Assembly: GCF_045679555.1 (NCBI RefSeq)
Contig: NC_092122.1
Coordinates: forward strand, 14,747,506-14,811,505
DNA: 64,000 nucleotides
From: Salvelinus alpinus
Lineage: Eukaryota > Chordata > Actinopteri > Salmoniformes > Salmonidae
Direction: 5' to 3'
Part shown: positions 19,603 through 63,295 of the stretch, one piece after another
Layout of the letters: each line of letters begins with the position of its first letter
How positions within the stretch are numbered: the stretch's first letter is position 1
Notes under the pieces: generated by a model
Seen by the model: only the letters and a program-made list of their open reading frames with translations
Databases searched by the model: none
What the model was told of the DNA's origin: nothing
Position numbers and translations under genes: made by a program

Positions 19603-20087
19603 GGTGATGATCCATGGCCCGTAGCCTCCAGTGATGATCCATGGCCCGGAGCCTCCAGTGATGATCCATGGCCCGGAGCCTCCAGAGACGATCCAAGGTC
19701 CGGCATCTCCAGCGACGGTCGGCGGTCCAGAGCCTCCAGTGACGGTCGGCGGTCCGGAGCCCCCAGCGACGGTTCCCGGTCCAGAGTCTCCAGCGGGGGT
19801 TCCCGGTCCGGAGCCTCCAGCGGGGGTTCCCGGTCCGGAGCCCTCTGCGACGATCTACGGTCCGGAATCCCCGGCGACGATCCACGGTCCGGTTCCTCCG
19901 GCGACGATCCACGGTCTGGTTCCTACGGCGACGATCCACGGTCCGGTTCCTACGGCGACGATCCACGGTCCGGAGTCCCTGGCGACGATCCACGGTCCGG
20001 TTCCTCCGGCGACAATCCACGGTCCGGTTCCTCCTGGCGATGATCCATGGCCCGGAGCCTCCGGCGACGATCCACGGTCCGGTTCCA
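19603..20087 (+). repeat. 27-bp coding-type tandem repeat inside the LTR element
   Basis: About 18 units of 27 bp, e.g. GACGATCCACGGTCCGGTTC plus CTCCGGC. In one plus-strand frame (19631-20329) they give nine-residue units of the type TIHGPVPPA; the minus strand is also open and gives RTVDRRR-type units. Neither is likely to be a host protein. One unit near 20030 has a small length change that shifts the plus frame. Confidence 0.85.
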
Positions 20088-21965: not shown

Positions 21966-51353
<29,388 letters not shown>

Positions 51354-59614: not shown

Positions 59615-60012
59615 ATGCGTCTTTTTCGGCCAACAAGATTAAGTATGACTTTAAAAAATGTCATTATCGCAAAAGTCAGACCAGAGAATGGTATTGCTTG
59701 TAAAGGTTACTGCACTTTCCTTGCCATTCCAAATACCAGGAGCGAGAGAAGGCTAACTTTGGGACCGTTAAATTTCAATAATTCCTGGACAGCGACTGCA
59801 CAGCGTGAGTTGAGAGTTCTCTCATCTTTGTCAACAACTAACAAGCAACAATGTAACAGAACATTAACAACAAATAACAACGCATACGACGAAGCTTTCA
59901 GAACAGCGAGGGATGACCCTGAACAGTTTTGGAGTGAAGCAGCACAGAATGTAACCTGGTTTGAGCCATGGAGCCGAACAATGGACAATGGGGACGCCAT
60001 ATTTCCAAAGTG
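59615..60012 (+). CDS. acss3: acss3 exon 1 (coding part)
   Basis: 398 nt, codons 1-132 plus two bases of the Trp codon. Ends AAAGTG followed by donor GTAACA. Start chosen as the first ATG of the frame; an internal ATG at Met 11 is possible. The conserved ACS text begins only at about residue 90, so the first part rests on the presequence-like composition. Confidence 0.9.
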
Positions 60013-63000
60013 GTAACAATTTACTGTATGTTGCTAAGTTTCAGTGCATCGATACCAATGAGGTGAACGCCAAATACGGGTTTGTTGCATAATGGTAAAT
60101 ACTAGTCATTTTACAACCGCTGGTGAACGACAAAATAATGGTAAAAGCTACTATTAACTACATGGGCATTATCATGCAAGTCGTTTCGGTGTAACGTCCA
60201 ATTCGCTCAGTCAGTCACACTTGGGTCACAGAGTGTAAACCCAGTGGCGAGACTTCCGGGAACGCTTGCAAAGCAGACCAGTCCTGGGTTTGAGATGTCA
60301 ATGAAAGAGGTGAAAAACTCTTCCTTAGTTGTTAATTTTTTCGAAATCTAAAGGCACAACGTAGATTTCAGCAAATGTCCTACCTAACTAGTTGAACATA
60401 TTACTACTCCCAACCTTGTGAAAGTGACAAACGTTTTCATTTTCGTCAAAAACATCAATATATTGAAGGACATGCTTTGAGACATGCGCAGTTCGGCGCG
60501 AGACAACCTTTAGACCCGATGACGTTATCTGAGCACTACCTCCACCTACCACTTTGGCGCTATAGAATTTTTCCTACTACTTGAAAGCATTATATGTGTG
60601 GACGTTATGTACACTGTACATACAGTTAGTAGTCTATGACTATCCAATTGTGAAATATAATGCAGTTGTGCTTAATTGTTACATATTTTGTAATGGTTGT
60701 CAGAATTAATTTTGTGCACCAAGGTCACATTAAACCATGTATAGCTGTCCAAAGTATTTGATGGCAGACCTCACAAGATGAACCTTAAATTCTGCATGGT
60801 AAAAATCCCATATGCTCTCTAGATTGACCTCAGTGTTGTAATAGTTTTAAAACCAAAGGCATATGGCTAGAGAGCGACTGTGCATGATGTCTCATCTTTC
60901 TGTGTGCGTGCATATTTAAAACAACAGGAATCCAGACACCATCTGCTTGTCTCAGCACCTCAGTACCTCAACAGAGCTCATAATGAGTTGAGAGTCCCAT
61001 TTCATCAAAAGATCTGGGGTTGTACATAGATCCTGTACGTTGCAGGAAAAACGGTCATTTTTGACTGTTCATCTTATCATACACATTCTCTAATTGCAGA
61101 CTAAGCTACTGTGCTTACTGTTATCTTTATGTTATTTCATAACATTGACAGATCTATAGTGAAAGTATTACAGTAGTTATTTATTGGCTCTTAATGACAA
61201 TATGCTACCTCTAATGTGGGGCTTTCTCTTTGTAAGGTACGCCGGGGGGGAGTTGAATGTTTGCCACAATGCGGTGGATCGCCATGTCGAGAGCGGACGA
61301 GGAGATCAACCGGCCATCATTTATGACAGCCCAGTGACTGGAACTAAGCAGACCATCACTTTTAGAGAACTACAGGAACAGGTAAGGATCTCAACCACTT
61401 TTAGAGAACTACAGGAACAGGTAAGTATCTCAACCACTTTTAGAGAACTACAGGAACAGGTAAGGATCTCAACCACTTTTAGAGAACTACAGGAACAGGT
61501 AAGGATCTCAACCACTTTTAGAGAACTACAGGAACAGGTAAGGATCTCAACCACTTTTAGAGAACTACAGGAACAGGTAAGGATCTCAACCACTTTTAGA
61601 GAACTACAGGAACAGGTAAGGATCTCAACCACTTTTAGAGAACTACAGGAACAGGTAAGTATCTCAACCACTTTTAGAGAACTACAGGAACAGGTAAGTA
61701 TCTCAACCACTTTTAGAGAACTACAGGAACAGGTAAGTATCTCAACCACTTTTAGAGAACTACAGGAACAGGTAAGGATCTCAACCACTTTTAGAGAACT
61801 ACAGGAACAGGTAAGGATCTCAACCACTTTTAGAGAACTACAGGAACAGGTAAGGATCTCAACCACTTTTAGAGAACTACAGGAACAGGTAAGGATCTCA
61901 ACCACTTTTAGAGAACTACAGGAACAGGTAAGGATCTCAACCACTTTTAGAGAACTACAGGAACAGGTAAGGATCTCAACCACTTTTAGAGAACTACAGG
62001 AACAGGTAAGGATCTTAACAAACCTCTTCACACTGTAGATATTAATTTAGACTGTAGGACATCCCTCTAAATATACATTTTCACCCGTATGTTGTAACAT
62101 AGCATAGCCTCCCCTAAGCAGCTTGAACCCTTTCCCCTCCTCTCTGCCCAGGTGTCCAGGCTGGCTGGGGTCCTGGTGAAACACGGGGTGTGGAAGGGCG
62201 ACCTGGTGGTCATCTACATGCCCATGGTGCCCCAGGCCATGTTCACCATGCTAGCCTGTGCCAGGATCGGAGCCCCGCACAGCCTCATTTTTGGGGGATT
62301 CGCCTCCAAGGAGCTGTCTGTCCGCATCGACCATGCCAAGGTCAGCCGACCATCATCGCTTCACATTGTGTCTCTTTAGTTTGATGTGCTGGATGACACC
62401 ATCATCGCTTCACATTGTGTCTCTTTAGTTTGATGTGCTGGATGACACATCTTTGTTCTCTCAATTTAGTTTGAAATGGACCATGCACTCAAATATATTT
62501 TGCTATTTGGTATTTTCTCCACTGTCAGATCTGTTTTAATGGTTAAATGTGAAATGTACATGCCACATTTATAGGACTGTTTATAGAAGAGTTGATGGCC
62601 CACTTTCACAGTCACAGAGACAGTAATATTGCAGTAGATAAAGGTCTCACTGAAGCCAAGTGAAGCACTTTGTTGGAGGGATTTCATCAAAGCGGCAGGG
62701 ATATTAGCCAGTATGCGACTCTGACGGTGAATTGCATATACTGAAATCCTTTTAAGCTATTTAAGCCAGACCTTAAAGCCTTTTAAGTTCCAGGCCTATA
62801 TAACATTCAGAGAGGAGCACCTCCACTATTGCTGAAGATTCCTCCTCAAGCATTTGGGTAGAGTTGAGTTTTATATTATATTAGAATGAAGGACATATTA
62901 GTGACACTCATTCTATGTGGAATGAGACAGTAATTTCAGATCCCTTATTAAATTTGATCAGTAACCCGAGGAAGGTATCATGGTGTGCAGATAGTAATTG

Positions 63001-63295
63001 AGAGGTAATATCGGTCATATTGATAGTACAATACTTTCAGAATGTTCTAAAGTCCATTTCAGACTAATGCATTTGTTGAGCTGTGTTGTATCACATCTCT
63101 TAAGTCTTGTTTCTTTTAAGAGGCACCACTAACACACTGTGTGAATGCTGTGTCTTCCAGCCCAAGATGATAGTGACGGCCTCCTTTGGCATTGAGCCTG
63201 GCAGGAGAGTGGAGTACATCCCCCTGGTGGAGAAAGCCCTGGAGCTCAGCTCTCACAGTCCCTCCAAGGTCCTCATCTACAACCGGCCCGGCATG
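59615..63295 (+). CDS. acss3: Acyl-CoA synthetase short-chain family member 3, first four coding exons
   Basis: ACSS3 is a mitochondrial enzyme that activates short-chain acids, mainly propionate, to acyl-CoA with ATP. Exons 59615-60012, 61237-61381, 62152-62340 and 63161-63295 join in phase to 289 residues. The N-terminus is Arg-rich with almost no acidic residues (MRLFRPTRLSMTLKN), fitting a mitochondrial presequence. The ACS N-terminal domain follows from about residue 90 (AFRTARDDPEQFWSEAAQNV), then GGELNVCHNAVDRHVE, VVIYMPMVPQAMFTMLACAR, IGAPHSLIFGGFASKELSVR and ASFGIEPGRRVEYIPLV. VTASFGIEPGRRVEY is characteristic of ACSS3. The catalytic Thr/Gly-rich ATP loop and the C-terminal domain would lie downstream, beyond 64000. 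The end of exon 2 has been amplified into an in-frame minisatellite that includes the splice donor. Confidence 0.95.
60013..61236 (+). other. acss3 intron 1
   Basis: 1.2 kb, from GTAACA to CTTTGTAAG. No transposon or repeat recognised. Confidence 0.8.
61237..61381 (+). CDS. acss3: acss3 exon 2, minimal form
   Basis: 145 nt from the acceptor TTTCTCTTTGTAAG to the first of 17 equivalent donors (GTAAGG at 61382). Encodes YAGGELNVCHNAVDRHVESG, RGDQPAIIYDSPVTGTKQTI, TFRELQEQ. The next exon starts at the residue that follows in other ACSS3 proteins, so this short form gives the normal protein. Longer forms using later donors would stay in frame. Confidence 0.9.
61357..62021 (+). repeat. 39-bp minisatellite made from the acss3 exon 2 / intron 2 boundary
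   Basis: The unit is the last 24-25 bases of exon 2 (ACTTTTAGAGAACTACAGGA, ACAG) plus the first 14-15 of intron 2 (GTAAGGATCTCAACC). There are 17 copies of the exon end. Donors occur every 39 bp from 61382 to 62006, exactly 16 periods. Four donors (after copies 2, 8, 9 and 10) read GTAAGT, the others GTAAGG. 39 bp is 13 codons, and there is no stop until TAG at 62036-62038, so the array reads as FRELQEQVRISTT repeats. The copies are almost identical, so amplification is recent. Confidence 0.97.
62152..62340 (+). CDS. acss3: acss3 exon 3
   Basis: 189 nt, phase 0 at both ends: VSRLAGVLVKHGVWKGDLVV, IYMPMVPQAMFTMLACAR and on to SVRIDHAK. The acceptor TCTCTGCCCAG is strong. The donor GTCAGC is non-consensus after the GT. 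Confidence 0.93.
62349..62448 (+). repeat. 49-bp tandem duplication next to the exon 3 donor
   Basis: Two virtually identical copies of ACCATCATCGCTTCACATTG plus TGTCTCTTTAGTTTGATGTG and the rest up to GGATGAC, beginning 8 bp inside intron 3. Confidence 0.93.
62449..63160 (+). other. acss3 intron 3, remainder
   Basis: No repeat or coding sequence recognised. Ends with a good acceptor, TGTCTTCCAG at 63151-63160. Confidence 0.75.
63161..63295 (+). CDS. acss3: acss3 exon 4
   Basis: 135 nt, phase 0 at both ends: PKMIVTASFGIEPGRRVEYI, PLVEKALELSSHSPSKVLIY, NRPGM. Donor GTGAGG at 63296. Confidence 0.94.

What the first reader, a model, noticed from the sequence alone, without database searches (positions are those of the whole stretch)
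61357..62021. acss3 exon 2 ends in 17 interchangeable, in-frame splice donors
Seen directly: a 39-bp tandem array made of the exon 2 end and the intron 2 start, so that every unit contains a GTAAGG or GTAAGT donor at identical spacing (61382 + 39k, k = 0 to 16). Because 39 is a multiple of 3 and no unit has a stop, splicing at any donor joins exon 3 in the right frame and adds k x 13 residues (up to 208) between FRELQEQ and VSRLAG of ACSS3. Inference: the array could act as a length-tunable protein segment, or as a donor cluster that keeps splicing robust while copy number varies among individuals. I know of no described system in which a minisatellite copies a working donor in frame like this. 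If only the first or last donor is used, the rest is a neutral intron repeat or an inserted repeat domain.
Basis: partly seen in the sequence, partly recalled or inferred. Interest (0 to 1): 0.88.

Follow-up and report, generated by a model that had tools for sequence, protein, structure and literature searches.

The report
Tandem array of duplicated splice donors
In a charr gene for a mitochondrial acyl-CoA synthetase, the end of one exon with its splice signal is repeated 17 times in frame; it is most likely a tolerated minisatellite, but a good natural test of how cells choose among identical splice sites.

Summary
The array is real: 17 units of 39 bp (61357-62019), donors at 61382+39k, all 17 giving an open, in-phase exon 2-exon 3 junction. 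It lies in an intact 16-coding-exon acss3 (722 aa), most likely of Salvelinus alpinus. Phase and openness alone are not surprising (about 1 in 4).

New here: (1) a collinear duplicate of the region on contig C11 (91.8% identical, probably the homeolog) carries the same array at the same exon end with the same seam: 30 donors, only 2 usable in frame, in a decayed acss3 copy. So the array predates that duplication. (2) Database models show such units in Oncorhynchus mykiss and Salmo trutta, where a unit other than exon 2's own is joined to exon 3. (3) In three capped searches no protein carried extra units between an intact exon 2 and exon 3; the charr model uses donor 1.

A minisatellite containing a working donor is already described (human ABCA7 intron-18 VNTR, out of frame; one-unit retention is a minor isoform).

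Best reading: an old, homogenised minisatellite; donor 1 dominates; downstream leakage is harmless because it is in phase. A tuned protein segment is not excluded, but unsupported. No charr RNA was available.

The parts
59615..60012 (+). acss3 coding exon 1 (start codon to donor GTAACA)
   Evidence: 721-aa homolog of S. fontinalis P0001 matches it
61237..61381 (+). acss3 exon 2 as ended by donor 1 (145 nt)
   Evidence: junction as in P0016, P0001
61357..62019 (+). 17 x 39-bp array: unit = last 25 nt of exon 2 + first 14 nt of intron 2
61382..61387 (+). donor 1, GTAAGG (intron 2 of 770 nt)
61421..61426 (+). donor 2, GTAAGT; with donors 8-10 the only ones complementary to U1 at all 11 positions tested
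61655..61738 (+). donors 8, 9 and 10 (GT at 61655, 61694, 61733), all GTAAGT
62006..62011 (+). donor 17, GTAAGG, the last; keeps the original right flank ATCTTAACAAAC (intron 2 of 146 nt, exon 2 of 769 nt)
61382..62151 (+). intron 2 as read from donor 1
62152..62340 (+). acss3 exon 3, the acceptor partner of all 17 donors (phase 0)
63161..63295 (+). acss3 exon 4; exons 5-16 lie beyond the window in L001-L004, to position 102958 of the extended sequence

Best explanation
A tandem duplication joined the last 25 nt of acss3 exon 2 and the first 14 nt of intron 2 to a second copy of the exon end, before the acss3 region was duplicated in salmonids. It grew into a minisatellite that copies a complete donor in every unit, and the arrays were homogenised separately. 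In charr the transcript is most likely spliced mainly at donor 1 (145-nt exon, normal enzyme), with some leakage to later donors. Because 39 is a multiple of 3 and the unit is open, leakage and changes of copy number do not shift the frame, so the array is tolerated in the working gene; in the dead copy it has gone out of frame. Shown: array, second array, shared seam, phase, donor pairing, related units in other genera. Inferred: dominance of donor 1, leakage, and tolerance rather than benefit.
For: Array and phase. Intact gene with AG acceptors and GT donors at its exons. The S. alpinus model P0016 lies on a contig of 18,865,345 bases, the length of C37, and has the donor-1 junction. Of the 120 proteins listed, 113 show the direct exon 2-exon 3 junction motif, 2 begin inside a unit, 5 lack the motif; among 21 entries named as salmonid, 17, 2 and 2. 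Two unnamed 721-aa entries (P0004, P0005) lie on contigs of 2,848 and 2,687 bases, too short for the 43-kb gene, so they are spliced sequence, and have the direct junction. Same seam and place on C11 in a collinear chain of 53 blocks, 63,355 bp, 91.78% identical. C11 copy decayed: no exon 1 within 30 kb, exon 7 cut after 53 of 96 bp, 5-bp deletion in exon 8. Usable in-frame donors 17 of 17 here, 2 of 30 on C11. Precedent: in ABCA7 the first donor is canonical and one-unit retention is 2 +/- 1% (PMC5954066).
Against: O. mykiss isoform X2 and S. trutta isoform X1 join a unit other than exon 2's own to exon 3, so later donors may be more than leakage in those fish. From the last donor intron 2 is only 146 nt, which by intron definition (recalled) could favour donor 17. 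All 17 donors of the charr gene are stronger than those of C11 (-11.5 or -14.0 against -8.1 kcal/mol), which neutrality need not give. Direct-junction models in other species say nothing if they have no array there. No charr RNA was available.
Confidence: 0.62

Rival explanations
1. The last donor (or the array as a whole) is the main choice: the short intron of 146 nt is recognised by intron definition, the whole array becomes exon, and ACSS3 carries a 208-residue repeat between FRELQEQ and VSRLAG.
For: Donor 17 makes the shortest intron. O. mykiss and S. trutta models contain a unit joined to exon 3; the S. trutta one carries the ILTT form, which matches the TTAAC of the last unit here and on C11.
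Against: The S. alpinus model and the other 16 direct-junction salmonid entries lack any unit. A search with the array as scored region and E up to 10 returned one protein, an unrelated EF-hand-type protein. The junction falls inside a helix of the enzyme (residues 55-71 of P0016, in a model poor overall but with pLDDT 67-86 there).
Confidence: 0.12
2. Selected, length-tunable protein segment: several donors are used in regulated amounts and the 13-residue steps matter.
For: 17 of 17 units in phase and open here against 2 of 30 on C11; stronger donors in the working gene; units kept in at least three genera.
Against: The 17 units are nearly identical (mean pairwise difference 1.3%), so they are close to one observation, not 17. 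In phase and open has odds near 1 in 4. No length variant in any protein seen.
Confidence: 0.07
3. Donor cluster as insurance or as U1 magnet: extra donors keep exon 2 recognised or recruit U1 snRNP, whatever donor is finally cut.
For: Four sites complementary to U1 at 11 of 11 positions, thirteen at 10 of 11; best other acss3 donor -9.6 kcal/mol. The array RNA is not unusually folded (z +1.74), so sites are accessible.
Against: Nothing shows that exon 2 needs help; GC-biased gene conversion (recalled) would also turn GTAATG into GTAAGG.
Confidence: 0.1
4. The array serves a short isoform: in O. mykiss and S. trutta a unit supplies a start codon (GTAATG) for a 552-aa form, by an alternative first exon or after a frame break upstream.
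For: P0023 and P0027 both begin at the Met of a unit.
Against: In the charr gene that codon is AGG or AGT in all 17 units, so this start is absent; the form lacks the N-terminal part and may only reflect how the models were made.
Confidence: 0.08
5. Assembly artefact.
For: None found.
Against: Second array on another contig with different units; units in proteins from other species' assemblies.
Confidence: 0.01

Closest known systems
ABCA7 intron-18 VNTR, human (PMC5954066; abstract and passages, one results section)
   Same: Minisatellite directly at an exon end, including the exon's donor; the unit begins with the donor GT (23.7 copies of 25 bp in the reference); splicing from the next unit's donor (retention of one unit) seen in cDNA as a minor form, 2 +/- 1%.
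   Different: 25-bp unit is out of frame, so unit retention gives a premature stop; the VNTR starts at the GT, whereas here 25 nt of exon are in the unit; there, length affects skipping of the next exon (exon 19), not tested here.
Internal tandem repeats at exon-intron boundaries in human segmental duplications (PMC2812944; abstract and passages)
   Same: Minisatellites of about 30-bp units at exon-intron boundaries of recently duplicated genes, kept or spliced out.
   Different: Described as making new introns through cryptic sites in exonic repeats; here an existing donor was copied.
[quoted passage not shown] potato RdRp PMC4974935; fission yeast SPOG_01682/SOCG_00815 PMC3629103, passages)
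   Same: Tandem duplication of a segment carrying a splice site, in potato across an intron-exon boundary, in fission yeast in several 24-nt copies.
   Different: No sign that a new intron arose here; the acceptor-like AGs of the unit are weak and the donor is the old one of intron 2.

Membership tests
Donor-copying VNTR of the ABCA7 kind | Minisatellite at an exon end that includes the exon's own donor | tested here: met
Donor-copying VNTR of the ABCA7 kind | Each unit offers a donor | tested here: met
   17 of 17 units GTAAGG or GTAAGT
Donor-copying VNTR of the ABCA7 kind | Unit retention seen in RNA | tested here: inconclusive
   No charr RNA; O. mykiss and S. trutta models include a unit
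Donor-copying VNTR of the ABCA7 kind | Length polymorphism among individuals | not testable with these tools
   one assembly only; the two loci of this genome differ (17 and 30 donors)
Intron gain by tandem duplication (AGGT model) | Unit carries AGGT that can serve as acceptor and donor | tested here: inconclusive
   AG|GT present, but the AACAG before the GT has 5 pyrimidines in 16 upstream positions; the 15 real acss3 acceptors have 9-15
Intron gain by tandem duplication (AGGT model) | New intron absent from relatives | not tested
   no genomic sequence of relatives available; the junction is continuous in relatives' proteins
ACSS3 (acyl-CoA synthetase short-chain family member 3) | Full-length similarity to named ACSS3 proteins and their domains | tested here: met
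   S. fontinalis P0001, 94% over 100% of a 760-aa query that had three added units; domains PF16177, PF00501, PF13193 listed for it

The most novel reading that the evidence does not exclude
The array is a selected, length-tunable donor cluster: selection keeps phase, openness and donor strength in the working gene, and the choice among 17 donors makes ACSS3 forms differing by 13-residue steps.
Probability: 0.07. Interest if true: 0.85.

Novelty: new variant of a known kind. Interest (0 to 1): 0.5.

Why it matters
Identical donors at equal spacing in one natural transcript are what splice-site-choice experiments build by hand: product lengths 145+39k nt would read out directly how exon definition, intron definition and U1 affinity (four perfect sites among thirteen near-perfect ones) set the choice. 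The out-of-frame array in the decayed copy of the same genome is a ready control for whether phase is kept by selection. Being in frame, it is also a harmless counterpart of the disease-linked ABCA7 VNTR.

Tried and rejected
One search covered the genome for a mistyped pattern (not part of the array) and found nothing; ignored. Recursive splicing or a self-contained intron inside the unit: rejected as main reading because the AG next to GT has only 5 of 16 pyrimidines upstream, and the better AGs (9-11 of 16) would leave 16-nt or shorter pieces out of phase. RNA structure: the 663-nt array folds no better than 20 shuffles, all 20 folding at least as well. Structure of the repeat peptide: never run, machine busy. 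AlphaFold of P0016 was poor (mean pLDDT 50.2); only the local helix is used. Salvelinus isoforms X3 (P0095, P0103), which start in exon 3, were considered as evidence for array use, but exon 2 skipping explains them equally. P0123 (Coregonus suidteri) was returned but has the plain junction. Papers: DDX3Y MSY2 minisatellite, earthworm metallothionein and a VNTR review were looked at by passages and are not this case; search listings; two of them (56 on FLT3-ITD, 57 on competing donors) and one search returned nothing. That an in-frame donor-copying minisatellite is not in print rests only on these ten searches of an open-licence library.

Full report
What is there. The window is G000:C37:14747506-14811505 of a 2.37-Gb genome in 928 contigs. 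Tandem Repeats Finder reports 17.0 copies of 39 bp at 61357-62019, 99% matches, no indels. Every unit is CACTTTTAGAGAACTACAGGAACAG (exon end) plus GTAAG[G/T]ATCTCAAC (intron start); donors lie at 61382+39k; units 2, 8, 9 and 10 have GTAAGT, unit 17 ends ATCTTAAC. All 17 donors give an open frame in phase with exon 3.

The gene. Exons were located with composite family peptides (recalled) and then read from the sequence. They make a 16-coding-exon acss3 from 59615 to 102958 (extended coordinates, L001-L004), with an unbroken protein; S. fontinalis isoform X1 (721 aa) matches throughout. The species is most likely Salvelinus alpinus, because the S. alpinus entry P0016 lies on a contig of 18,865,345 bases, the length of C37. 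P0016 uses donor 1 of exon 2, and an exon 1 donor at 60026, 13 nt downstream of the one I used (my reading).

How surprising is it. The array is beyond chance, but phase and openness are not: 1 in 3 for the length, 11 of 15 acss3 introns open over the first 14 nt. The donors are strong: four match all 11 positions complementary to the U1 5' end (recalled), thirteen match 10; duplex energies are -14.0 and -11.5 kcal/mol, the best other acss3 donor -9.6.

A second array. A DNA search of the genome found only one other locus among two candidates, C11:30802908-30804061, minus strand. There, 30 donors are spaced 38 bp (16 times) or 39 bp (13 times), all GTAATG. The seam between units, AAC followed by CACTTTT, is the same. 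The surrounding DNA is collinear with the window and beyond: 53 blocks, 63,355 bp, 91.78% identity, from window 1,498 to extended position 103,093. This fits a homeologous block of the salmonid genome duplication, though a later block duplication is not excluded. The C11 acss3 has no exon 1 within the 30 kb searched, a truncated exon 7 and a 5-bp deletion in exon 8. Only 2 of its 30 donors would give an open in-phase junction. The array therefore began before the two regions separated (or was passed between them by gene conversion), and each was homogenised: mean pairwise difference 1.3% in the window, 1.6% (39-bp) and 3.3% (38-bp) on C11.

Other salmonids. O. mykiss isoform X2 (P0023) begins MISTTFRELQEQVSRLAG and S. 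trutta isoform X1 (P0027) MILTTFRELQEQVSRLAG. These are units with ATG where charr has AGG or AGT, i.e. GTAATG as on C11. In O. mykiss exon 2's own copy reads FSELQEQ (P0006) and the X2 copy FRELQEQ, so the two are different genomic copies. An O. tshawytscha entry (P0122) has exon 2, one full unit and a shifted one, like the beginning of the C11 array (39 then 38 bp), and no exon 3; I take it for the C11-type copy. So units exist in Salvelinus, Oncorhynchus and Salmo, and the stronger charr donor (+5 T to G, in all 17 units) is probably derived. That is the one sign of possible selection; GC-biased gene conversion (recalled) is an alternative.

Which donor is used. Of 120 proteins listed, 113 show the direct junction, 2 begin in a unit, 5 lack the motif; of 21 named salmonid entries 17, 2 and 2. 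A search scored on the array alone (lengths about 511-1627 aa) returned only an unrelated protein; one scored on the junction with four units (about 188-596 aa) returned P0122, P0027, P0023 and P0123, the last with a plain junction. Limits: the database is clustered at 90% identity, so a member with one or two extra units can hide; only the 8000 candidates sharing most words were scored; models may follow homology, not RNA. Within these limits nothing shows a length series, and donor 1 is the supported junction in charr.

Protein level. In the model of P0016 (poor overall, pLDDT 50.2; 67-86 near residues 51-70) the junction lies inside helix 55-71 after strand 49-54. Since each unit ends TTFRELQEQ, added units would rebuild the first half of this helix before VSRLAG; whether the enzyme would tolerate this is open.

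Compared with what is known. ABCA7 intron 18 has a 25-bp VNTR beginning with the donor of exon 18; retention of one unit occurs at 2 +/- 1% and is out of frame, and longer alleles increase skipping of exon 19 (PMC5954066). Repeats at exon-intron boundaries and intron gain by tandem duplication are also described (PMC2812944; PMC4974935; PMC3629103). Here the same kind of thing is in phase and open, includes 25 nt of exon, is shared by several salmonids, and has an out-of-frame counterpart in the same genome. I file it as a new variant of a known kind.

Noticed in passing
62349-62448: A perfect 49-bp tandem duplication just inside intron 3, eight bases after the exon 3 donor; C11 has one copy.
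   Followed up: partly
L025 3909-5062 (C11:30802908-30804061): Second donor array of 30 units in a decayed acss3 copy within a collinear block.
   Followed up: yes
60013-60031: The S. alpinus model P0016 implies a second exon 1 donor 13 nt downstream (GTATGT at 60026), giving a 601-aa form without the N-terminal part.
   Followed up: partly
46783-47163: A 42-bp minisatellite, 9.1 copies, open over at least 143 codons on both strands; period a multiple of 3.
   Followed up: no
19611-20082: A 27-bp array of 17.4 copies with long open frames on both strands.
   Followed up: no
extended positions about 70430-71780 (L001): Another minisatellite in acss3 intron 8, also present on C11 (many overlapping matches).
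   Followed up: no
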